A stretch of 64,000 nt of DNA from Halapricum desulfuricans. GTDB lineage: Archaea > Halobacteriota > Halobacteria > Halobacteriales > Haloarculaceae. The stretch's first letter is position 1; each line of letters opens with the position of its first letter. The notes below the pieces were generated by a model that did not search any database, had not been told where the DNA came from, and saw nothing but the letters and a program-made list of their open reading frames with translations. The position numbers were made by a program, and so were the translations under genes. The stretch spans positions 744,001-808,000 of the forward strand of contig NZ_CP064791.1 in the NCBI RefSeq assembly GCF_017094465.1, written 5' to 3'. This document shows, in pieces, positions 2,724 to 61,057 of this stretch.

Positions 2724-4037
2724 ATGACAGAGACCGTGCTGCTGGTCGGCGGTGGGGGTCGCGAACACGCGGTCGCTCGCGCGCTCGCCGACGCCGACTG
2801 CGAACTGTACGCCTGCGCCGGGAACCGGAACCCGGGCATCGCGCGGATCGCTGAGGACTTCGAGACCCTCGATACCACCCATCCGAAGGCCGTGACGACC
2901 TACGCCCGGTCGGTCGAGGCTGATCTGGCCGTCATCGGACCTGAAGCGCCCCTGCAGGCGGGTGTCGCCGACGCGCTCGACGACGCCGGGGTCTACGCGT
3001 TCGGCCCGCGGGAAGACGAGGCGCGCATCGAGACGGACAAGGCCTTCCAGCGGCGCTTTATGCGAGAACACGACATCCCGGGCTGCCCGGACTTCGAGAC
3101 TTTCGAGGACATGGAGGCCGCCTGTGCGTTCATCGACTCCTACGACGGTGACCTGGCGATCAAGCCCGCCGGGCTAACCGGCGGCAAAGGCGTTCGTGTC
3201 ATCGGCGATCAGGTCACCGCCGAGGAGGGCAAGGCGTACCTCCGTGACTCCGAGTACGACCGCGTCGTCCTCGAAGAGCGGCTGGTCGGCGAGGAGTTCA
3301 CCGTCCAGGCGCTGGTCGCCAACGGCGAGGTCCGTGTCACGCCCGCCGTTCAGGACCACAAGCGCGCCTACGAGGGCGACGAGGGGCCGAACACCGGCGG
3401 GATGGGAAGCTACAGCGACGCCACGCTGGAGTTGCCGTTCATGGACCGCGACGACTACATGGACGCGGTCGACATCATCGAAGCCACGGTCGACGCGCTG
3501 GACGGGTACAAAGGTGTTCTCTACGGCCAGTTCATGCTGACCGCCGACGGGCCGAAGGTCGTCGAGTTCAACGCCCGCTTTGGCGATCCCGAGGCGATGA
3601 ACACCCTGCCGGTGCTCAACACGGACTTCCTGGAGGTGCTGACTGGCGCACGGGACGGCGAGACGCTGCCACAGCTATCCTTCGCCCCGAGCGCGACCGT
3701 CTGCAAGTACGCCGTTCCGGCGGGCTATCCGACCGAGCCGGAAGCCGGCGCGAAAGTCACCGTCGACGAGGAGAGCGCTCGCGAGATCGCCGGCGAGTAC
3801 GACGGCGAGGCGCTGCTGTACTACGCCAGCGTCGACGACCGTGAGGACGGTATCTACACCACCACGTCCCGCGCGTTCGCGGTGGTCGGGCTCGCGGAGA
3901 CGATCACCGACGCCGAGGAGATCGCCGAGGCCGTGCTGAACGAGGCCGGCGAGGAGGGGCTGCGCGTCCGCCATGACATCGGCAAGCCGGATCTGGTCCA
4001 GAAGCGGATCGACCACATGGCGGAGTTGCGCGAGTAG
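2724..4037 (+). CDS. purD: Phosphoribosylamine-glycine ligase (GAR synthetase)
   Basis: Second step of de novo purine synthesis: ATP, glycine and phosphoribosylamine give glycinamide ribonucleotide. The 437-residue protein begins with the family N-domain glycine-rich loop (LLVGGGGREHA, residues 5-15). It carries the ATP-grasp motif KPAGLTGGKGV near residue 148 and the NTGGMGSY and EFNARFGDPE motifs. Length is normal for a stand-alone PurD. No other purine genes are adjacent. A pyrimidine-rich TATA-like stretch (accttttacc) lies about 30 bases upstream of the ATG. Confidence 0.95.
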   Translation: MTETVLLVGGGGREHAVARALADADCELYACAGNRNPGIARIAEDFETLDTTHPKAVTTYARSVEADLAVIGPEAPLQAGVADALDDAGVYAFGPREDEARIETDKAFQRRFMREHDIPGCPDFETFEDMEAACAFIDSYDGDLAIKPAGLTGGKGVRVIGDQVTAEEGKAYLRDSEYDRVVLEERLVGEEFTVQALVANGEVRVTPAVQDHKRAYEGDEGPNTGGMGSYSDATLELPFMDRDDYMDAVDIIEATVDALDGYKGVLYGQFMLTADGPKVVEFNARFGDPEAMNTLPVLNTDFLEVLTGARDGETLPQLSFAPSATVCKYAVPAGYPTEPEAGAKVTVDEESAREIAGEYDGEALLYYASVDDREDGIYTTTSRAFAVVGLAETITDAEEIAEAVLNEAGEEGLRVRHDIGKPDLVQKRIDHMAELRE

Positions 4038-29861: not shown

Positions 29862-30254
29862 TCAGTACGTCTCGACGTTGACTCCGAGCGCTGCGAAGTC
29901 CCCGACGTTGTCGGTGAGGACAGGTTCGTCGTAGATGTCAGAGACTGCCGCGACCATTGGGTCGACTTTGTCGATGCCGCTTTCACCGTCAGCTTGCTGG
30001 TCGGCCCGCGCGAGTAGCTGTCCGGCGCGATGGGCTATCGTCTCGTTCTGTTCGACGACCGGATACATCCGGAGCGCGTTCCTGACGTTCCGCCGTTCGT
30101 CTTCGTCGCCGAACTCGACACCGTACGAGAGTTCCATAACGACCGGTGAAGGAACCCGCCGAACGGTCTTCGTCTCGGAGAGTTCGATGCCTTTCTCGAA
30201 CGCCCCCTCGCGACCGTCGAAGAGATCGATCAGGAACGACGTATCGAGGATCAC
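29862..30254 (-). CDS. PIN-domain ribonuclease toxin, VapC type
   Basis: A 130-residue PIN nuclease. It starts MILDTSFLIDLF with the first catalytic Asp at D4. Further acidic residues follow at VMELSYG, in KVDPMVAAVSD and in LTDNVGDF, giving the usual four-acid metal site. VapC toxins cleave tRNA or rRNA when freed from their antitoxin. The start overlaps the stop of the antitoxin gene by four bases (ATGA). Confidence 0.9.
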   Translation of the reverse strand: MILDTSFLIDLFDGREGAFEKGIELSETKTVRRVPSPVVMELSYGVEFGDEDERRNVRNALRMYPVVEQNETIAHRAGQLLARADQQADGESGIDKVDPMVAAVSDIYDEPVLTDNVGDFAALGVNVETY

Positions 30255-30481
30255 TCGAACCGCTCCCGGAGTTTGTGTTTCTCTTCGGCATCCGTCTCGT
30301 GCTTGTTTTCGAGACGATCTCGCATAGTCATTGCCGTTTCTGACGAGAGTATCCCGGCGACGTCTTCGGGCTGAGGCCCCCCAATGAGCCGGCGGAGCGT
30401 CTCTTCCATTGTCTCGTTTTCGCGCTTGTGAGCCTTCACGAACTCGTGGAATTCCTCGGAGATACGAACTGATTTACTCAT
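30251..30481 (-). CDS. VapB-type antitoxin
   Basis: A 76-residue protein starting MSKSVRISEEFHEFVKAHKR, an AbrB/RHH-like antitoxin N-terminus, followed by a helical, acidic C-terminal tail that would wrap the toxin. The ATG at 30481 is used; the longer open frame to 30619 starts in non-coding sequence. It is directly upstream of, and overlaps, the PIN toxin gene, and the pair is probably autoregulated. Confidence 0.85.
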   Translation of the reverse strand: MSKSVRISEEFHEFVKAHKRENETMEETLRRLIGGPQPEDVAGILSSETAMTMRDRLENKHETDAEEKHKLRERFE

Positions 30482-30660
30482 ATACCGTATACTCGGATAT
30501 ACGCATTGATCAATCTTCGGCTGCTGTTCGGACTGTCGTTCGAGAGAGCAAGCTCTTCCCTGATGACGAGACGCGAAGCGTCTCGAACCACTTGACCCCG
30601 AGTACTTCACCGTGGCCACAGATAGATGCCCTTAGCGATGCTGTCCACAGTGAAAATGGC

Positions 30661-30768: not shown

Positions 30769-32514
30769 TTACAGCGACCAGATGTCGGCGGCCAGTTCGG
30801 CGAGGTCGTCCGTGCGGTCCTCGATCTGGTTGGTCTTCCAGTCGATGTGCTGACCCCGGAGTTCGCGGGTCATCTCGTACTGGGTGCTCTTGTACTCCTC
30901 CGTCGTCCGCTTGGTCTCCCACGGATCGTTCTGGACTGCGGCGTTCGGGAGTTTCTCGAGCAGCGTCACGTTGCCGAGCATCTCCGCGTAGACGCACTCG
31001 AACTCGTCTTGGTCGACGTTGAGGTAGGGCTCCCAGCCTGACTGGTACCGACCGACGGTGAACGCCTTCCGAGGCGCGATGTGCTCGACGCTACCGGTGT
31101 GACGACTACCGCCCCATGTCCCCGTCGAACCTGACCGGTAGTGCTCGTGCTCGAGCACGTTCAGGAAGTACCGCGTCTCCTTCCCGGCGTTCCAGTTCTT
31201 GTTACTGCTGAGCTTGTCGATGAACTCGACGTCCGTGGGCTCGATCTCTTGGAGCTGGGAGTGGATGTAGTCGACGCTGTTCGGCTCGTCCCAGGCGTTG
31301 ACCGCCAGGTCGATGTAGACCTGGAACGCCTGTGGCGTCTTGGCCTCGGACTTGTGCCGGCGGAATGCCAGCTTCTCCACGTCGACCGCGAGGCGTTCGA
31401 GTTCGCGGTCAGAGAGTCCCTCGAGGACGGCTCGGGTGAGGAGCACCGCCGTCGGACGCGCTCCAATCTTGTCGAAGATGCGGTCGAGGTGGGTGTTGAT
31501 CTCGGCGCTGGCACTCCCGACCTCCGCCTTCACGACGTCGCTGTACGTCTGGACGTACTCGCGGAGTTCGACGACCCACTCGTACAGCGAGAGGCCGTGC
31601 GGGGAGAGCCCTCCGTTGATCAGCTTGTCGATGGTGGGGACGATGTCGCTCTCGCCTATCTTCGTCCCGGTACCCCACGCCGGCGCGGCGATGAGCACGT
31701 AACGGACCGCTCTCGCCGGCCGGAGGTCCTCGAGCACATCCTGGAGCTTCAGCCACTCCTGGAAGACCGCCTGGGGGTCCTCGTCGGGGTCGCTTGCCGC
31801 TTTCCTCAGTACCCGTGCCTTGGCGGTGTCTACCGGGCTCAGGTCCGCTCCTCGGGACTGGTCCGAGAACACCTGGTACGGGGAGTAGGCGTCGCTGAAC
31901 TGGACGGTGTCCATGATCAGACCACGCATGAGGTTGTCGACCAGGTCCTCGAGGTCGGACTTGTCCTCCACGCGGGCTTCCATCTCCTCTCGGATGACCG
32001 TGCTGGCGTGCGCTAGAATCTCGTGTGCGACTGTCTGCGTTGGGTCGTCGAGGAGGTTCGCGAACGCCGAGTCGTCGGGCACCGTGAGGTGCATCTTCCG
32101 CGAGAGACCGTCGCGGGTGCGCGTCTCCAGGTACGTCGACTCGAGGTGGGTGGCCGCGCTGTCGTCACCGAACTGGTTTCGGTACAGATCGACCGCGTGC
32201 GCGAGCACGATCTGGGCGGTACCCATCCGTTGCTGCCCGTCCAGAACACTCAGACGGGTCGCACCGGACCCGAAGGGGTTGTCATTAATCGTCGTCAGCT
32301 TGAGCGTCCCGAGGTAGACGCCCTCGGGCCGTGCTGACGCTTCGTCGATCTTGTCGAAGAACTCACGGATCTGCTTCTCCTCCCACGTGTACAGCCGCTG
32401 GAGCTCGACGTCCTCCTCGAGTTCCATCGTATAGATGACGTTCCGAGAGAACATCTCGTGGAAGGAATCGACTCCCGGCGCGATTCCGTGGTTGCTCCCG
32501 CTATCGATTGCCAT
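30769..32514 (-). CDS. GmrSD-like DUF262/DUF1524 type IV restriction nuclease
   Basis: A 581-residue protein. The DUF262 (ParB/sulfiredoxin-like) N-domain has LQRLYTWEE at about 39-47 and the hallmark DGQQR at 92-96, which in GmrS uses NTP. The C-terminal DUF1524 part has an HNH-like site in VEHIAPRKAF, followed by LGNVTLLEKLPNAAVQNDPW. Fused GmrSD proteins cut DNA carrying modified cytosines. The ATG at 32514 precedes the conserved domain; the upstream open frame to 32640 is low-complexity. It is the leftmost gene of the element. Confidence 0.85.
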   Translation of the reverse strand: MAIDSGSNHGIAPGVDSFHEMFSRNVIYTMELEEDVELQRLYTWEEKQIREFFDKIDEASARPEGVYLGTLKLTTINDNPFGSGATRLSVLDGQQRMGTAQIVLAHAVDLYRNQFGDDSAATHLESTYLETRTRDGLSRKMHLTVPDDSAFANLLDDPTQTVAHEILAHASTVIREEMEARVEDKSDLEDLVDNLMRGLIMDTVQFSDAYSPYQVFSDQSRGADLSPVDTAKARVLRKAASDPDEDPQAVFQEWLKLQDVLEDLRPARAVRYVLIAAPAWGTGTKIGESDIVPTIDKLINGGLSPHGLSLYEWVVELREYVQTYSDVVKAEVGSASAEINTHLDRIFDKIGARPTAVLLTRAVLEGLSDRELERLAVDVEKLAFRRHKSEAKTPQAFQVYIDLAVNAWDEPNSVDYIHSQLQEIEPTDVEFIDKLSSNKNWNAGKETRYFLNVLEHEHYRSGSTGTWGGSRHTGSVEHIAPRKAFTVGRYQSGWEPYLNVDQDEFECVYAEMLGNVTLLEKLPNAAVQNDPWETKRTTEEYKSTQYEMTRELRGQHIDWKTNQIEDRTDDLAELAADIWSL

Positions 32515-32734
32515 GACAATCACCTCGGGAGCGCGCGATGTGGTTGGCTGTCTGTGCCGGACTGCCCCTGCGGGAGGGGCGCCGGCGAACGGGTGCCGAC
32601 GAGTGGACCCGTTCCGTTTCCGTCTCGTATGGATGTTCACCGCTGCCGGTCAGCTGGCGAACATCGCTTCGCATTTCTTCCATGCGTTGGGTGTTCGAAC
32701 GTTGGCGGTACACCCAGGACAGAAACGCTGAAGA

Positions 32735-32887
32735 GCTTGGGCACTGTATTCGCGCCCAAGCCCCAGGTCGGCTGTCGCTGGGGTGACCCTCCGGACCAGA
32801 CCAGTGTAACCGGACGTGGTCCGAAGGGAGCGATCCTGGAGGGACGTGCCAGCGTCCCTCCCCGTCTCCGATTCTCGGTGAGCCGAG
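32735..32887 (+). ncRNA. Candidate structured RNA: five consecutive hairpins
   Basis: Perfect stems lie end to end: gcttgggc/gcccaagc (32735-32761, 8 bp), cccag/ctggg (32762-32782, 5 bp), cggacca/tggtccg (32792-32823, 7 bp), ggagggacg/cgtccctcc (32838-32861, 9 bp) and ctcgg/ccgag (32874-32887, 5 bp). It does not fit tRNA, SRP RNA or RNase P RNA motifs. Orientation is a guess. Transcription is not shown by the sequence alone. Confidence 0.4.
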
Positions 32888-32947
32888 GGCATCGTCGACG
32901 TATACGCCCGTTGGTCTGTCGGCGGTAAAAGTCTTACTGTCTATACT

Positions 32948-32964
32948 GGTGAGAATTTCTCACC
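32948..32964. promoter_or_regulatory. Operator-like inverted repeat
   Basis: The sequence ggtgagaatttctcacc has perfect 8-bp arms around one base. It lies 166 bases before the GHKL gene and 434 bases upstream of the divergent DUF262 gene. A related half site (ttctcact) occurs near 33052. A dimeric repressor site is the simplest reading. Confidence 0.45.
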
Positions 32965-33130
32965 ATGAGAAATTAGCGTGTATTTCCGGACATGTCGCTT
33001 CGGACCCTCGCCCTGGATAGATGCAACGCGGTTGCGCCGGGGTAACGTAATTCTCACTGTGGGAATATCGAACCAATATAAGTGTTCAACCCTCAAAAAG
33101 ATTATCACCGTAGAGTTCGGAGTAGTCGGT

Positions 33131-35248
33131 ATGACACCCGACAGCGGGGACTCTTCCGAGATCTCTACTATTGACGTCGCTCCGTCGGGCCGAATCGTCG
33201 AAACCCTTGCCCGCCGAGAGGCCATCCCCAGCGTCAAGGAGCAGGTCGATAATGCCATCGACGCCGCGCGCAGGCACAATTACCTCATCGAGCAACAGTC
33301 CGAGAGCGTCGGAGAGAAGATTACAGACGCACGGATTGAAATCGAGTTTCCCACCACTGACGACGAGGAACAAGATGACGCCGGCGAGGAACAGGCCGAA
33401 GTCGAGGAGGAAAGTGGTGACTCACAAGACCGTGATAATCAACCCGAAGAAGAGCCCTACATAGAAATTTGGGATAACTGTGGGGGCCTTTCCGAAGACC
33501 GGCACGCGATTGTTCTGCGGCCCGGAACGTCTGCGAGCGAGGAGGCTGAAGATCTCCCGCAACTTCCTGACGCGATTGGATGGGCGGGTGTCGGTGCCAT
33601 CAGAGGTGCGATGTCACTCGGACATACCGTCACCTTTGCAAGCCGCCGCGAAGGCGAGGAGATGGGCCACAAGGCGACGGTAACGCTCGACAACTACACG
33701 AGCGACGAGACGGAAATCCCACTAGAACCTTATGAGATGGAGGAGGGAACCTCGTTCATCCGCATCGAGGATCTCACCATCGCTCTCGAGGAGGACTTCG
33801 GTGAAGACGGAGCCGAACTCATCGAGGAACTCGCGTCGACGTACTCGCTTTTCCTCGGTGGGGAATTCCCCGGTGTTCGAGAAGAGGACGGCCTCGAGCC
33901 CGACATCGATCTCGATCTGTACGTCAATGATACTCTGGTGAACGACCGGGTCCAGGCCAAAGACTACGACTGGGCCTTCGTCCCGATGGATGATCTCCAC
34001 CCGCGCACAATCCGGGGATACGAGGTTAACCCCGAGAAGTTCGACGGCATCTCTGAGAGGCTTCGGGTCGATTTCACTGTTGGTCTTCTACGAACCAAAG
34101 ACAGCAGCAAGATGGGGTTGACCCTCTACGCGAACCGACGAAAAATTCTCGACGCAGAAACTGAGAAAGGACTGAACCGACAGTTCAATTTCAACTCATT
34201 TAATCCTGTTACCCAGGGCCGATTATGTATTCTTGTGTCGATCAGAAGCGTCGAAGAACCATCCGATATCCCGACCACTGACGAGAAAGATACTCTAAAC
34301 TTCGACTATACCACGACCAAGGAAATCCTGAAAGCGGTTGGCCGGCTGGGAGTGGAGTACCAGCGCCATTCGATGAGTAAGAAACTCCCTGTACCAATCA
34401 CCAAAGCGTATCCTCGTGGTCACCCGCAGGCGAGTAACGGCGGCGAGATTGAGGACCACAATTACTCAAGTGATCCAAATGATCTGGAGGACGTTGGTCG
34501 AAAGAATATCACCGACAAGCCAGGCCAACCTGCTGAATCTGGACGATACAACGATTTCGTGGAGTACCCGCGCGTTCGAGATATCATCAATACGCACGCG
34601 GAGCTGGGAATTTGGTGCCCAACAGTCCTATCTCCTGAATATCGCCCTGCCTATGTAGGGATCACTGAGGAAATCGCCGAGGAGTATGATATCGAGCCGA
34701 CAAAGGGCTATTACGAAGGTCAGTTCGACGAACTCCATGACGATCCCTACTGGCTCGAGGACCCCATCGAAGTTACCGATGGCCCGGGTGAGGAGTATGA
34801 TACGGAAACTAAAATGGAGTATCTCACCGAACTCGCGCGGTTGCACGCCCGCGAAAATGTCTACTATACTGGCCTGCCAAAGTTTGAGGACCCATTCTAT
34901 AAAGAACAACTCGTGACTGCAGGTGCGTCGCTCGATGAACTTGAAGCAATCGACAAGTTGCCAGAAGAACTTCAACCCGAATCGCCGAAAAAGCCTGAAG
35001 AGCCTGACGAAGAAGACGAGGAGACAGAGAGTGAGGATAGGAGAGGGGTCATTTCAGAAACTACAATCGATTATATCCTCACTACAGAACAGAGATCCAG
35101 AATCGAAGACCAACATCTTCCTTCAGACTACGAGTCTCTCGAAGAGGCTGATGAAGAAGCAATCGCCCAAATCCTCAGATCCGTACTCGAAGAGACTGAG
35201 GAAGCAGAAGAAAAGCTACAAAGTATACAAAATATGATACAAACATAG
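33131..35248 (+). CDS. GHKL (MORC/MutL-like) ATPase, putative defence protein
   Basis: A 705-residue protein with a GHKL ATP-binding domain: N-box VKEQVDNAIDAA (35-46), G1 box EIWDNCGGLS (112-121) and G2 region IGWAGVGAIRGAMSLG (149-164). A very acidic insertion (about residues 76-108) sits between the first two. The middle resembles the S5-like transducer domain of MORC/MutL/Hsp90 proteins. The C-terminus is acidic and helical. ATG 33131 is chosen, as earlier in-frame codons cross the promoter region. GHKL ATPases recur in restriction-like systems as DNA clamps. The nearest partner is the convergent PD-(D/E)XK gene. Confidence 0.75.
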   Translation: MTPDSGDSSEISTIDVAPSGRIVETLARREAIPSVKEQVDNAIDAARRHNYLIEQQSESVGEKITDARIEIEFPTTDDEEQDDAGEEQAEVEEESGDSQDRDNQPEEEPYIEIWDNCGGLSEDRHAIVLRPGTSASEEAEDLPQLPDAIGWAGVGAIRGAMSLGHTVTFASRREGEEMGHKATVTLDNYTSDETEIPLEPYEMEEGTSFIRIEDLTIALEEDFGEDGAELIEELASTYSLFLGGEFPGVREEDGLEPDIDLDLYVNDTLVNDRVQAKDYDWAFVPMDDLHPRTIRGYEVNPEKFDGISERLRVDFTVGLLRTKDSSKMGLTLYANRRKILDAETEKGLNRQFNFNSFNPVTQGRLCILVSIRSVEEPSDIPTTDEKDTLNFDYTTTKEILKAVGRLGVEYQRHSMSKKLPVPITKAYPRGHPQASNGGEIEDHNYSSDPNDLEDVGRKNITDKPGQPAESGRYNDFVEYPRVRDIINTHAELGIWCPTVLSPEYRPAYVGITEEIAEEYDIEPTKGYYEGQFDELHDDPYWLEDPIEVTDGPGEEYDTETKMEYLTELARLHARENVYYTGLPKFEDPFYKEQLVTAGASLDELEAIDKLPEELQPESPKKPEEPDEEDEETESEDRRGVISETTIDYILTTEQRSRIEDQHLPSDYESLEEADEEAIAQILRSVLEETEEAEEKLQSIQNMIQT

Positions 35249-35250
35249 CT

Positions 35251-35276
35251 CACCATCTGCTAAATTTTGCGTAGGG
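35251..35276 (+). repeat. 3'-flank motif, copy 1 (after the GHKL gene)
   Basis: The block caccatctgctaaattttgc, followed by gtaggg, starts three bases after the GHKL stop. Of its first 22 bases, 20 match the block that follows the McrC-like gene at 44129. It may be a terminator or a recombination boundary. Confidence 0.6.
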
Positions 35277-45152: not shown

Positions 45153-45659
45153 ATGACAGATACATCTGAATCCTGGCGGGAGCAGGGTGAGAACATGGGT
45201 CTCAATGAAGAGACGGCTCGCATCGAACTGTACTGCAACTATCGGGACAAAGAAACATGGCAAGAAGAAGCCGACGTCGAGAATTACAGCAGTCTCAACA
45301 AGTATCTCCGCGATATGATTAATCTCGGTCGTGTGTACCGCAAAGAGGGGACTCAAGGCCGACAAGACGCTGACGATAGGGTTCAGGAACTCGAAGCCCA
45401 AATCGAAACGCTCCAACGAGAGTTGGCTAACCAGGAACCGGAGACCATCGGCCCTGACGTCGTTGATAACGCCCTCATTGAAACGCTACTCGGCGAGCAG
45501 TACCAGACCGTCGAAGAGATTCTCGAACAGTTGACCGCGAATGAGAACCTCCAAGCGAATCTCAAGAAACCAGTCGAAGACGCACTCTATGACTTGGCTG
45601 GCGACGGCCGTGCGGAGTATCAGGAAGGCTGGGGCTGGCGGCTTGGCGGTGAACAATGA
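45153..45659 (+). CDS. Small coiled-coil regulator upstream of the integrase
   Basis: A 168-residue protein. The N-terminal part (RIELYCNYRDKETWQEEADV ... SLNKYLRDMINLGRVY) resembles an RHH/MetJ-Arc DNA-binding unit. It is followed by a coiled coil (VQELEAQIETLQRELANQ) and a winged-helix-like C-terminus. The ATG at 45153 has a GGAG ribosome site seven bases upstream, which favours it over 45129. Its stop overlaps the integrase start (ATGAG), as is usual for such regulator-integrase pairs in haloarchaea. It is likely to act on excision or on the palindrome upstream. Confidence 0.75.
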   Translation: MTDTSESWREQGENMGLNEETARIELYCNYRDKETWQEEADVENYSSLNKYLRDMINLGRVYRKEGTQGRQDADDRVQELEAQIETLQRELANQEPETIGPDVVDNALIETLLGEQYQTVEEILEQLTANENLQANLKKPVEDALYDLAGDGRAEYQEGWGWRLGGEQ

Positions 45660-46591
45660 GCAAACCAAAACGGCACTCCAAGATCTACGAGAACAAGCAT
45701 GACGAGGTGAACGAGTTCCTCCAACGGAAGGAAGACCTCGGACGCAGCCGGAGTACACTGAATGAATACAGTCGCAATCTCCGTGAGTTCTTCAACGACG
45801 AATTTTCTGAGGTAGAGCCAGCTGATGTCGAGGTGCGACACATCGAGGAATATCTTGGTATCCTGAGCGAGCGGGATGTCGCACAGAACACGAAACGGCG
45901 CTATCTCGAATCACTATCTTCGTTCTTCGACTATGCGATGAAGCGACCACGTTTCAACCAGATAACGGGTAATCCAGTCGCGCCCGTCCTCGAAGAACTT
46001 CCAAAGGTGAACCGCTCACGCCCGGACTGTGCGACGTGGGAGAACGCTTGTAAGATTGTTCACGAGATACCCAGCCCCCGTAACCGGACGATAGCCGCCA
46101 TCCTCGCCAAGACTGGCTGCCGCTTACAAGAGGCGCTGGAAATTGAACTTGAAGATCTCCTAATCGATGATGGATTCATTCGGCTCCGGGTTCGGAAGGG
46201 CGGCGGACAAACGGTTGTGCCCGTTGACGAGGAGATGGTTCGGGCGATTGAACGCTACAAGGTGATTCGAACTGACTACGAGACTGCCTATCTGTTCCCA
46301 AGCAATCGAGGAGATCGCCTCTCAAAACAGCCAATTCGAAAACGAATCAAAGAGGGCGCTGTGGAAGCAGGTGTGATGGAACAGGGGGAGGACCGCTTCC
46401 ACCGGAAGTTCACCCCACACACGTTTCGGACCGTGTTTACGACGGCGATGCGGAACGCAGGGATGAGTAATCACGTTCTTCAGTATATTCGCGGCGATAG
46501 CGATAATCAGACGATGGACATCTATACTCGCGTCGACCGCACTACGGCCCGAGAAGAATACCTTGACTGTATCAAATCGCTGAACCTCTGA
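45656..46591 (+). CDS. Tyrosine recombinase / integrase
   Basis: A 311-residue site-specific recombinase. A SAM-like core-binding domain (about 15-110) precedes the catalytic domain. Catalytic residues visible are Arg in TGCRLQEAL, Lys in RVRKGGGQT, His/Arg in PHTFRTVFTTAM, and nucleophile Tyr in MDIYTRVD. The usual second His is in a divergent RGDSDNQT segment. It presumably integrates and excises this element. It is not split, so its attachment site is outside its own coding sequence. Confidence 0.92.
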   Translation: MSKPKRHSKIYENKHDEVNEFLQRKEDLGRSRSTLNEYSRNLREFFNDEFSEVEPADVEVRHIEEYLGILSERDVAQNTKRRYLESLSSFFDYAMKRPRFNQITGNPVAPVLEELPKVNRSRPDCATWENACKIVHEIPSPRNRTIAAILAKTGCRLQEALEIELEDLLIDDGFIRLRVRKGGGQTVVPVDEEMVRAIERYKVIRTDYETAYLFPSNRGDRLSKQPIRKRIKEGAVEAGVMEQGEDRFHRKFTPHTFRTVFTTAMRNAGMSNHVLQYIRGDSDNQTMDIYTRVDRTTAREEYLDCIKSLNL

Positions 46592-46817: not shown

Positions 46818-46913
46818 ATGAAGGAAGGCAGGAAGGTGAGCCCGGAGGGAAGCCCCGGCTGGCTCGCCCAGGAGGTTCGGACTCATGAATCACTACGAGA
46901 GCAAGGAGAATAA
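46818..46913 (+). CDS. 31-residue leader-like ORF overlapping the primase start
   Basis: A short frame encoding MKEGRKVSPEGSPGWLAQEV..., which overlaps the first 29 bases of the primase gene in another frame. Its sequence is hydrophilic and lacks low-complexity bias. A hairpin-like gagcccggag/ccccggctggctc region lies within it. It may be a translated leader that couples to primase synthesis. It could also be fortuitous, so confidence is moderate. The 220 bases before it (46592-46817) show nothing else. Confidence 0.45.
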   Translation: MKEGRKVSPEGSPGWLAQEVRTHESLREQGE

Positions 46914-48171
46914 TTCTGCTGATTGTCATGTCTACCCACGGTTTTCCGAGCCTGGTACTCTTCGAGGATTCACGGTTACGACAGCAAGACCACCATTAGA
47001 GGCTCCCGGTCAAGTTCATACTCGACTAGTTGAGGCTGGTCTACCTGCCGAACGATTCGTGGACCTTCAGGACGGAACGAAAGAGCCGACAGCCAGCCAT
47101 ACTGACCCTGCGAACCAGTTCGGTGCCGAACACGTCGACGGAAACTACGGTATCTTCGCGGGATCGGGACTCATCGTCATCGACGTTGATCACCCCGACA
47201 AGCTTCCCACCTGGATGGTTCAGCTTTTGGCCCAGAATCCCACCTTTGCGGTTTCATCACCACATGGAAGCGAAGCTCGCCGGCACTACTTCTATCGGAT
47301 CGAGGGTACCGTCGAGACGGAGAAGACGTTCCTCAAAGACGAGTGGGGGAGTATCCGACTCAAGGGGGCCTACGCAGTCGGGCCTGGTTCGGTGATCGAT
47401 CACGACGAATACTGTGACGATTGTTCGCTCGCCGGTATCGGGGAATACGAGCCCCGTGCTCGATCGATCGAGACTCTCCAAGCCAACGCGTTCGAACCAG
47501 CACTTCCAGACGAGAGAGCGGAGACGGCTGACTCACGGGCTTCAGTCGAGATTGACATCAACGATCCCGAGTCCCGTATTCAACGAGGCCTCGATACGAA
47601 CGAATATTTCCGTGACCTCTGGACCTGGGCTCGTGAAGGCGGACGTCCTGCGATTGTCGGGTTTCCCGGGAATCGCTCGGCTGCGGAAACGGCGCTCTCG
47701 GCACACCTCAATTTCTGGTTGAGCGGGGATACCGACGCTATCCGTGATGCGTTCAACCGAATCCAACCGCCAAAGTGGTCTGTATCGGGGGAATCGTACC
47801 GACAGAGCGTGTTAGAGCAGGGCGATAACGGGATGTACTACGATCCAAATCCAGAGGGTGGCGGCGTCAGTTGGCATGCTGTCTTCGAGGTGATACTCGC
47901 TCTCTGTTACGAGTATGAGGGACAAGCTCGAACGCGGGCTCTGGCCGCCAGTGAGGACGTCGAAGTGAGCCAACGACAGGTGGTCAACGTGCTCAATCAA
48001 CTGAAGGAGATGGGATACCTCGACAAACAGCAAGACGAGCAGGACGGCCGGATCGAGTATTGGGTCGTCACCGACATGGAGGGATTAGTAGAGTTCTCAA
48101 ATAGTGACGACCTACTTGAACAGTACAATCCCCGTGATGCTCAACTCGAATGGTGTCGTCGGTATCTATAG
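46885..48171 (+). CDS. Prim-pol type DNA primase/polymerase
   Basis: A 428-residue replication protein of mobile elements. The bifunctional primase-polymerase domain has NYGIFAGSGLIVIDVDHPD (catalytic DVD) and VSSPHGSEARRHYFYR, which matches the S-P-x-G-x-x-H-x-Y core. IRLKGAYAVGPGSV completes the site. The C-terminus carries a winged helix (EVSQRQVVNVLNQLKEMGYLD). No helicase domain is fused. It would prime replication of the excised element, working with the ParB-clamp protein and host polymerases; this is inference. Confidence 0.88.
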   Translation: MNHYESKENNSADCHVYPRFSEPGTLRGFTVTTARPPLEAPGQVHTRLVEAGLPAERFVDLQDGTKEPTASHTDPANQFGAEHVDGNYGIFAGSGLIVIDVDHPDKLPTWMVQLLAQNPTFAVSSPHGSEARRHYFYRIEGTVETEKTFLKDEWGSIRLKGAYAVGPGSVIDHDEYCDDCSLAGIGEYEPRARSIETLQANAFEPALPDERAETADSRASVEIDINDPESRIQRGLDTNEYFRDLWTWAREGGRPAIVGFPGNRSAAETALSAHLNFWLSGDTDAIRDAFNRIQPPKWSVSGESYRQSVLEQGDNGMYYDPNPEGGGVSWHAVFEVILALCYEYEGQARTRALAASEDVEVSQRQVVNVLNQLKEMGYLDKQQDEQDGRIEYWVVTDMEGLVEFSNSDDLLEQYNPRDAQLEWCRRYL

Positions 48172-52433: not shown

Positions 52434-52664
52434 TTATCCGCGACACTCATCGGGGAAGTCCATCTTGTTCAGGACTTCAACCCCACAGCGGACGCATTTC
52501 AGGTAGTGTTCGATATAGCCGCTACGTGTTCCGTCTCGCTTGTGCGGCTCCGGATGGTGTCCGGGGACCCACTCGCTCTTTCGGATGACTCGATGCTCAC
52601 CGGTCTTCGAGGCTCCATCGTGTTCTGGCGGTACGACCGAAGAATTGAATTTCGATTCGCTCAT
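52434..52664 (-). CDS. Small zinc-binding protein
   Basis: A 76-residue protein ending HYLKCVRCGVEVLNKMDFPD-E-C, a C-x2-C...C pattern with nearby His (PGHHPEPHKRDG) that could hold one zinc. The N-terminal 30 residues look disordered. Similar short zinc-ribbon proteins occur near replication genes of haloarchaeal elements. No function is assigned. Confidence 0.6.
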   Translation of the reverse strand: MSESKFNSSVVPPEHDGASKTGEHRVIRKSEWVPGHHPEPHKRDGTRSGYIEHYLKCVRCGVEVLNKMDFPDECRG

Positions 52665-58302: not shown

Positions 58303-58833
58303 AGGTGTCCAGCTCGGAAGCCCACTCCTTCAGGGGTGGGCGGAAGCGCGTCGGCTGCGCTGCCGACCAGTGCGCTCTGGTCGGCGACGGTTTCTCTATC
58401 GACACATTTAATTCCATCCTGTCTGTATCTGATCCTACACTCCGGGGCGGCCAAAACGGACGCCCCGGAGGGGCCGCCGTAGGCCGGCCCCGAACAGCGG
58501 GATGCTGACGACGCCGCTCCGACCGCCGTTTTGGCGGCGCGAAGCGTTCGAGTCCACGCTGAGTTAAAGCGGTGTGTTGACGCCAGCCGCCCCCGACGCA
58601 TAAAGCCCGGCGGGAGTATGCCCGATTGAACAGCACAGTTCAGCCGGGCAGAACCACGGCGTCGTGCGACCCGCCTGTGACACTCCTTGGAGCGAGGGCA
58701 GAAACCGCCACGGGGAAAGCCCTTGACTTCAGTCATGGGTAGCTTACTGGCCCGCCGTTGCACGAACGTAGGCCTTCCAGCGTTTATAAATTCCCATCGT
58801 CTCAGCCAGGTCACCGCGATCAGACACCACGAG
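58303..58833 (+). mobile_element. Hairpin-rich IS605/IS1341 relic, no intact gene
   Basis: A 531-base gap. Right-end-like hairpins lie at 58321-58340 (cccactcc/ggggtggg) and about 58727-58741 (cttgacttcagtcatggg). Between them are strong hairpins: gccgaccag/ctggtcggc (58362-58385, 9 bp), ctccggggcg/cgccccggag (58440-58470, 10 bp) and ccgcc/ggcgg around 58523. A frame ending ETATGKALDFSHG before 58740 may be a TnpB tail remnant. No working gene is apparent. It could also encode a structured RNA. Confidence 0.5.
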
Positions 58834-59905: not shown

Positions 59906-61057
59906 TTATTCGACGTAGTCGATATCGTCGCCGAGTTGCTGGGCGGCTTTCTCCTGTTCGGCCTCGCTTTTGCCGTAGATCTGCGGGCTGTCGACGCCGG
60001 TCACGACGATCATCGTTTCCATCTTGCCGTCGTGATCCTGGTCGACCGACGCCCCCCAGATGATCCGCGCGTCGGGGTCGATCCGATCGTAGATCTCCTC
60101 GACGACGCCTTCGGCCTCCTCGATGGACATGTCCGGTCCGCCGACGACGTTGACCAGCGCGGAGTTCGCGCCGTCGAACTCCACGTCCAGGAGCGGCGAG
60201 CGCAGGGCAGAACGGATCGAATCCTGGGCCTTGTTCTCGCTGTCGGATTCGCCGAGCCCGATCATGGCGACGCCGCCGTTCTCCATGATCGTGCGAACGT
60301 CGGCGAAGTCGACGTTGACCAGCCCTGGCTTGGTGATCAGTTCAGTCATACCCTTGACCGAGCGCATCAACACGCGGTCACAGATCTTGAAGGCGTCCTG
60401 CAGCGGCATCGAGGGCGCGTAATCGAGCAGCCGATCGTTGGGCACGACGATGACCGTGTCCGAGACCGCCCGCAGTCGTTCGAGGCCCGCGTCGGCGTTC
60501 GCGCGTCGGCGTTCACCTTCCGCGGTGAAGGGGATGGTGACGATAGAGATAGTGAGTGCACCCTGCTCCTGGGCGGCCTGGGCGATCACCGGCGCGGATC
60601 CCGTCCCGGTTCCGCCGCCGAGCCCGGCCGTGACAAAGACCATATCGGAGCCGTCGATCGACTGCTGGATGTCTTCGATGTTCTCCTGGGCGGCCTCCTC
60701 GCCGATCTTCGGGACCGAACCGGCCCCGCGACCGCCGGTCCGCTTGCGGCCCATGAGGATCTTCGTGTCGGCTTTGACCTCGTCGGCGAGGTGCTGGGCA
60801 TCGGTGTTGGCCGCGACGAGTTTCGCGCCGTGGATGCCCTCCTCCATCATGCGCGTGACGGTGTTCCCGCCGGCACCGCCCGTCCCGACGACGGTGATCT
60901 TCGTCTCCAGATCCTCGACGACATCGGCCAGTTCCGCGTCGCTCATCTGCCCGGACGTCGAGACCTCCTGTGACGACGACTCCGTGCTGCCCTCGGAAGC
61001 CGGATCCTGATGCTCTTCGTCGGCTTCCTCCATGGCTTCGTCGATGATCGAGTCCAT
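59906..61057 (-). CDS. ftsZ1: Cell division protein FtsZ
   Basis: A 383-residue tubulin-like GTPase that forms the division ring. The GTP signature is GGGTGTG at 147-153, preceded by [15 protein letters not shown], with the NTDAQ motif and the T7 region [15 protein letters not shown]. An acidic N-terminal extension (residues 1-45) and the ending DIDYVE are typical of haloarchaeal FtsZ1. A TATA-like sequence (gaataaaatagg on the minus strand) lies about 35 bases upstream. The sepF gene in this window encodes its likely membrane anchor. Confidence 0.95.

What the first reader, a model, noticed from the sequence alone, without database searches (positions are those of the whole stretch)
32735..32887. 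Run of five consecutive hairpins between two divergent defence genes
Within about 150 bases there are five adjoining perfect stems, one of 9 bp and one of 8 bp, in a 616-bp gap between a GmrSD-like nuclease gene and a GHKL ATPase gene. No known RNA family fits by eye. It could be a structured RNA acting as sensor, guide, antitoxin or trigger, or an element relic. It was found without any protein signal.
Basis: seen in the sequence. Interest (0 to 1): 0.65.

Follow-up and report, generated by a model that had tools for sequence, protein, structure and literature searches.

The report
Conserved RNA leader before restriction nuclease
The hairpins are real and form a conserved folded RNA just in front of a DNA-cutting defence gene in a few salt-loving archaea; the RNA matches no known family and probably controls, or works together with, that nuclease.

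Summary
The hairpins are real and exceed chance, but belong to a larger element: about 184 nt (32892-32709) on the MINUS strand, the strand of the GmrSD-type nuclease gene (30769-32514), and 5' of it. All four members found of one GmrSD clade (tree support 100/100), in two families of haloarchaea, carry it. A covariance model built only from G420 and G282 finds the window at 110.7 bits, E 2e-31. G406 is supported by fold, motif and position, not by the models. Across window, G420 and G282, 12 of 40 pairs show two-sided compensatory change; structure adds 33 bits over sequence alone for G420. The RNA goes with GmrSD, not with the divergent GHKL gene, which is absent beside two members. The last stem ends 28-32 nt before the start codon in three genomes (198 nt in the window). 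No Rfam match; single-copy wherever a model hit it; not coding by substitution pattern. Best reading: a structured 5' leader controlling GmrSD in cis, possibly by binding GmrSD. An RNA that is a working partner of the nuclease is not excluded. Nothing here shows transcription or function.

The parts
32927..32938 (-). promoter-like BRE/TATA site (AGTAAGACTTTT), about 40 nt 5' of the first hairpin
   Evidence: not distinctive in the window (62 of 100 shuffles as good); a perfect consensus site lies at the like place in G282
32874..32887 (-). P0 hairpin (5 bp here; 7 bp in G420; about 14 bp in G282, different sequence)
32838..32861 (-). P1 hairpin, 9 perfect bp; two-sided changes at 2 pairs across 3 genomes
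32787..32828 (-). P2 hairpin, 12 bp plus inner helix; two-sided changes at 8 pairs
32772..32792 (-). conserved P2/P3 junction motif GGAGGGTCACCCCAG and following GACAG strand; GGAGGGTCACCCCAG identical in G420, GGCGGGAGACCCCAG in G406, GAGGGGCACCCCGG in G282
32710..32784 (-).
   Evidence: minimum-energy fold in window, G420 and G282; 6 of 22 pairs with two-sided change
32555..32708 (-). window-only extra stretch with further hairpins between P3 and the gene, absent from the other three members
32519..32526 (-). Shine-Dalgarno-like GAGGTGAT before the GmrSD start codon
30769..32514 (-). GmrSD-family nuclease gene (581 aa), DUF262 + DUF1524, both motif sets intact
33131..35248 (+). divergent GHKL-like ATPase gene (705 aa); neighbour, not part of the conserved unit; weak Pfam match only

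Best explanation
The hairpins are the conserved part of a structured 5' leader RNA of the GmrSD-type nuclease gene. Transcription probably starts just 5' of P0 and runs through P0-P1-P2-P3 into the gene. The folded leader, whose last stem ends about 30 nt before the start codon in three of four genomes, controls how much nuclease is made, most likely through a protein (perhaps GmrSD itself) or another signal acting on the leader near the ribosome-binding region. Shown here by computation: conserved structure, its sense, its link to one GmrSD clade, the spacing. Inferred: co-transcription, control in cis, and what the signal is.
For: Model R3, built from G420 and G282 only, finds the window (110.7 bits, E 2.1e-31) and nothing else credible in 47 loci, 338 kb. 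R1, built from the window alone, finds G420 (69.8 bits) and G282 (16.2 bits, E 0.0056), each 5' of GmrSD on its strand. Structure raises the G420 score from 36.7 to 69.8 bits; without structure G282 is not found. 94% of cells paired and 12 of 40 pairs with two-sided change, reached by 0 of 500 shuffles; slid versions give 0-3. Whole leaders fold far better than shuffles: window z -5.73, G420 -5.86, G282 -6.46. G406: P2 to P3 z -5.99 (0 of 200) with the junction motif. The four genes form a clade, 100/100. P3 ends 31, 32 and 28 nt before ATG in G420, G282 and G406. The best promoter-like site lies 5' of the RNA in all four (three sites tie in the window), perfect in G282. The window gene has an 8-nt Shine-Dalgarno-like site; only 2 of 39 long ORFs in the window have 5 or more. 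One hit per genome in G000, G282 and G420.
Against: No transcript data. In the window P3 ends 198 nt from ATG, not about 30. The window's promoter-like site is no better than shuffles (62 of 100), G406's is matched by 28 of 100. G282 and G406 lack an exact Shine-Dalgarno match of 4 nt. G406 is missed by R3 and gets 4.2 bits from R1; a differently bounded stretch of it folds no better than shuffles (z -0.32). Only three sequences carry the covariation count, on an alignment fitted to the structure. A hairpin over the ribosome-binding-like site seen in G420's fold is not conserved.
Confidence: 0.5

Rival explanations
1. The RNA is a functional partner of the nuclease: it is processed from the leader, binds GmrSD, and holds it inactive (RNA antitoxin), senses infection, or helps choose targets.
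For: RNA and GmrSD are the only shared unit in four genomes with otherwise different neighbours; the RNA diverges with the fast-evolving GmrSD (51-63% nt identity; 28-37% aa) although the next gene GHKL is 85% identical at DNA level between window and G420; at about 184 nt the core is large for a simple leader (inference).
Against: The predicted GmrSD fold is that of DndI, SspE and BrxU with no obvious added RNA-binding domain; near-constant 28-32 nt spacing to the start codon in three genomes favours action in cis; no promoter-like site between RNA and gene outscored those 5' of the RNA.
Confidence: 0.3
2. It is a DNA-level element: a hairpin-rich recombination or replication site, or the relic of a mobile element.
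For: The island is of low G+C and holds a tyrosine recombinase; hairpin-rich DNA is typical of such sites (recalled).
Against: The sense strand folds better than the antisense strand in window, G420 and G282, which G-U pairs explain and DNA hairpins would not; single copy in each hit genome; tied to one gene clade at a fixed side and strand.
Confidence: 0.07
3. The similarity reflects a short conserved protein-coding frame rather than RNA.
For: Window and G420 share an open frame across the core with a similar peptide stretch.
Against: Substitutions fall evenly over codon positions, 19/50, 22/49, 20/49; the corresponding frame is interrupted by stops in G282; compensatory changes in stems.
Confidence: 0.04
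4. The RNA is a two-state switch in which the strand CTGGGG pairs either with CCCCAG or within the extended hairpin.
For: Both partners exist in window and G420.
Against: The long-stem fold is lower in energy in all three by 4.3, 6.8 and 10.4 kcal/mol; the alternative helix has no two-sided change among its 6 pairs.
Confidence: 0.09

Closest known systems
GmrSD-family type IV / modification-sensing restriction enzymes (GmrSD, BrxU, SspE, DndI)
   Same: Both Pfam domains above gathering score, DGQQR and His-finger residues invariant, Foldseek best matches DndI 9jfl (TM 0.61-0.62), SspE 7drs, BrxU 7p9m
   Different: No RNA partner or leader is mentioned for these enzymes in the passages read (PMC10952713, PMC12409362, PMC11662687: passages only); here a conserved structured RNA precedes one clade
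Structured 5' leaders / riboregulators
   Same: Conserved fold 5' of one gene, same strand, near-constant spacing to the start codon in 3 of 4
   Different: Matches no Rfam model; a study of Haloferax volcanii calls structured leaders not typical in haloarchaea and finds 72% of coding transcripts leaderless (PMC4983044, passages and one section read)
ncRNA-plus-effector defence systems (type III toxin-antitoxin, DRT reverse transcriptases, TnpB/IscB with guide RNA)
   Same: A structured RNA encoded next to a single nuclease effector in a defence island
   Different: Effector is a GmrSD fold, not ToxN, a reverse transcriptase or a RuvC nuclease; no tandem repeats in the RNA core. Family features recalled; papers seen only in search listings

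Membership tests
GmrSD family (protein) | GmrSD_N (DUF262) and GmrSD_C (DUF1524) domains | tested here: met
   52.3 and 64.9 bits, cut-offs 33.2 and 23
GmrSD family (protein) | DGQQR nucleotide motif and His-Me finger residues intact | tested here: met
   D92-R96, H478, N515, N524 invariant in 23 sequences
GmrSD family (protein) | overall fold of DndI/SspE/BrxU | tested here: met
   model pLDDT 85.2
GmrSD family (protein) | cleavage of modified or unmodified foreign DNA | not testable with these tools
   needs biochemistry
any Rfam family (4227 models) | score above gathering threshold | tested here: not met
   0 in the window; best sub-threshold hits are chance level
structured 5' leader | conserved structure in sense with and 5' of one gene family | tested here: met
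structured 5' leader | co-transcription with the gene and effect on expression | not testable with these tools
   no transcript data; promoter-like sites only
type III toxin-antitoxin | tandem-repeat RNA antitoxin and ToxN-fold RNase (recalled) | tested here: not met
   no direct-repeat array in the core; GmrSD fold
guide-RNA nucleases (TnpB, IscB) | RuvC-type nuclease partner (recalled) | tested here: not met
   only GmrSD domains found
mobile element / MITE | several copies per genome | tested here: not met
   one match in own genome by DNA and by model in G000, G282, G420

The most novel reading that the evidence does not exclude
A clade of GmrSD-type restriction enzymes works as a ribonucleoprotein: the leader RNA is cut out, binds the enzyme and gates its activity, so that a modification-sensing nuclease is placed under RNA control (antitoxin, infection sensor or specificity factor).
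Probability: 0.25. Interest if true: 0.88.

Novelty: new variant of a known kind. Interest (0 to 1): 0.62.

Why it matters
It is an RNA family without a match in Rfam, tied to one clade of a well-studied type of defence nuclease, in a group of archaea where structured leaders are thought to be unusual. How such nucleases are kept from harming the host is open for most of them. If the RNA controls the enzyme's synthesis or activity it offers a directly testable answer, and a search handle for more such units.

Tried and rejected
DNA search with the whole gap in 195 relatives gave three genomes: the own one and two with short matches that lie in coding-like sequence. Plasmid search by DNA gave only two chance Rhodococcus matches. 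A pattern scan of viral contigs for the junction motif gave 11 contigs, none supported by the covariance model. Hits of R1 in G372, G304, G489 and G310 lie in or beside unrelated genes. A plus-strand hit in G420 is the palindrome of P1. GmrSD homologues of other clades showed some negative z values (L027 -3.1, L043 -3.2); L043's close relative L075 has no such structure (z +0.7), so nothing conserved there; L027 was not followed. The two-state switch was tested and is not favoured. The coding-frame rival was tested and rejected. Searches of the literature for an RNA tied to GmrSD showed none in their listings; this covers only open-licence PubMed Central papers.

In one search I read three loci without turning them to the gene's strand; the folds printed there for L007, L019 and L021 are not of the leaders and are not used; one search repeats it properly. 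The first literature asks were rejected for a character in a search term; one search repeated the first in fewer words, the second was not repeated and PMC4983044 was read instead. In fold comparisons the strength depends on the ends chosen: for the P2-P3 part alone G420 has z -2.15 (4 of 200) and G282 -2.94 (1 of 200), weaker than the whole leaders. R1's scan of the family of G420 did not report G282 and G406, which lie in that family (stricter filters).

Full report
What was checked. The reported stems are in the sequence. Two perfect hairpins of 8 bp or more in 153 nt occur in 1 of 500 shuffles, and the minus strand folds far better than chance (z -5.30, 0 of 200), the plus strand less so (-3.17). 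The structured stretch is longer: 32555-32892 minus has z -6.44 (0 of 100) against -2.73 for plus. Because 6 of 108 upstream regions in the fetched loci reach z -4 (some of the 6 are the leaders discussed here), energy alone would not carry the case.

Which gene it belongs to. The GmrSD-type gene 30769-32514 (minus) carries GmrSD_N and GmrSD_C domains, conserved motifs of both active sites, and a predicted fold closest to DndI, SspE and BrxU. The other neighbour, 33131-35248 (plus), is GHKL-like on weak evidence (HATPase_c_3, E 0.0038, below cut-off). I searched GmrSD relatives by protein in 146 genomes of the own family (7 with a match at 1e-20), an even sample of 391 genomes of the class (29 at 1e-40), 125 genomes of the family of G420 with the G282 protein (3 at 1e-70), and with a four-sequence profile in 21 genomes of the order (3 at 1e-60) and 170 genomes of the family of G286 (13 at 1e-90). 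The samples overlap and include the own genome in several cases. Three relatives stood apart: G406 (35% identity, E 1e-88), G282 (37%, 1e-87) and G420 (30%, 2e-56). In a tree of 36 rows these and the window form a clade with support 100/100. The tree warns that their branches are long.

The RNA in relatives. Of 33 loci tested (the own one included), the 300 nt 5' of the gene had sense-strand z of -3 or lower in 6: window, L019 (G406), L020 (G282), L021 (G420), and two of other clades, L027 and L043 (15 shuffles each). The last was followed and is not conserved; L027 was not followed. A covariance model from the window alone (R1) found G420 (69.8 bits, E 8.2e-20) and G282 (16.2 bits, E 0.0056) in 43 sources, both directly 5' of GmrSD and in its sense. 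The same alignment without structure (R2) gives G420 36.7 bits and does not find G282 at E 10. A third model, R3, from G420 and G282 only, finds the window at 110.7 bits, E 2.1e-31, all modelled pairs standard, and no other credible place in 47 sources. R3's structure was taken from the window through R1, so this is not fully independent. In genome scans R3 matched 2 of 262 class genomes (own and G282) and 1 of 27 chosen GmrSD-bearing genomes (G420), one place each. G406, in that list, was not matched.

Covariation. On the three-row alignment A11 (identities 50.8, 62.7 and 59.7%) 94.0% of 117 cells pair, 12 of 40 pairs change on both sides and stay paired; no shuffle of 500 reaches this, and sliding the partners by 1-3 columns gives 30-53% paired and 0-3 such pairs. 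P2 carries 8 of the 12.

A better fold for the 3' part. In the window it runs from 32784 to 32710. It also explains why the seemingly unpaired stretch CTTCAG..TTTCTGTCC is conserved between window and G420.

The fourth member. G406 has P2 (12 of 13 pairs), the junction GGCGGGAGACCCCAG and an outer stem CCCAGAACC/GGTTCTGGG; P2 to P3 has z -5.99 (0 of 200). The motif GG-N-GGG-N(2,3)-ACCCC-R-G occurs 14 times in 0.98 Mb of strand scanned (both strands; 20 redundant or short loci left out); 11 are in viral contigs fetched because they contain it, and the other three are window, G420 and G406, each at this place. Against: R3 does not match it, R1 gives 4.2 bits, and a differently cut stretch has z -0.32.

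Context. Window and G420 share a defence island: GHKL region 85%, next pair of genes 74%, a McrB-like gene 87% identical DNA, but GmrSD only 28% protein identity. G282 and G406 show none of these other genes within the roughly 20 kb fetched. So the conserved unit is RNA plus GmrSD, and the RNA diverges with GmrSD.

How it may work. P3 ends 31, 32 and 28 nt before the start codon in G420, G282 and G406; in the window an extra structured stretch makes it 198. Scored against the haloarchaeal consensus quoted in PMC4983044 (BRE CGAAA, TATA TTWT; passages read), the best site lies 5' of the RNA in all four; it is a perfect match in G282 (3 of 100 shuffles as good) and good in G420 (2 of 100), but unremarkable in G406 (28 of 100) and the window (62 of 100; three sites tie there). 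An earlier scan used a matrix written from recall. The window gene has an 8-nt Shine-Dalgarno-like site, unusual for this window (5 or more in 2 of 39 long ORFs). A leader acting in cis is the simplest reading. A working RNA partner of the enzyme is the main rival, favoured by the size of the RNA and its divergence in step with the protein.

Novelty. No Rfam match at gathering threshold in the window nor beyond chance in the gap. Listings of five literature searches show no RNA tied to GmrSD. The paper on Haloferax volcanii start sites states that structured leaders are not typical in haloarchaea (section read). That the order is Halobacteriales is inferred: contig G300:C2 has the length of, and the same GmrSD protein as, a Halobaculum magnesiiphilum plasmid (where L018 and L039 are identical).

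Noticed in passing
window 32947-32974 and 33051-33065: Palindromes built from TGAGAA/TTCTCA (9-bp arms at 32947-32965 and 32954-32974, and a second, imperfect copy) lie between the RNA's promoter-like site and the GHKL gene: operator-like.
   Followed up: no
window 33097-35276 versus L055 12377-14544: GHKL gene 85% identical at DNA level between window and G420 while the adjoining GmrSD is 28% identical as protein: module exchange or very fast divergence at the end of a shared island.
   Followed up: partly
window about 28000-58000: Low-G+C island (45-64% against about 66%) with KAP NTPase (PifA-like, PADLOC E 1.5e-111), EEP-type nuclease, McrB-like AAA with EVE domain, tyrosine recombinase (45656-46591) and Prim-Pol protein (46885-48171).
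   Followed up: no
window 29862-30254 and 30251-30619: VapBC-like pair (PIN toxin, weak VapB antitoxin match) next to the GmrSD gene.
   Followed up: no
window 32555-32708: Extra 154-nt stretch with its own hairpins between the conserved RNA and the gene, absent in the other three members: a window-specific insertion or a second regulatory domain.
   Followed up: partly
L021 3244-3290: In G420 a hairpin (GGTCTC/GAGACC) holds the GGAG ribosome-binding-like site just before the start codon; not conserved in the other members.
   Followed up: partly
L063, L065, L066, L068, L069, L071, L072: 7 of 11 viral contigs with the 15-mer GGAGGGTCACCCCAG share the longer GGAGGGTCACCCCAGACT, so they may be one conserved viral gene; taken as chance.
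   Followed up: no
window 60241-60360 (minus), 52441-52560 (minus), 58441-58560 (plus): Other stretches with folding z of -4 or lower in a coarse 120-nt scan (25 shuffles each).
   Followed up: no
L033, upstream of ORF 3159-3851 (minus): Strongly folding upstream stretch (z -5.2, 20 shuffles) in another genome, not matched by the models.
   Followed up: no
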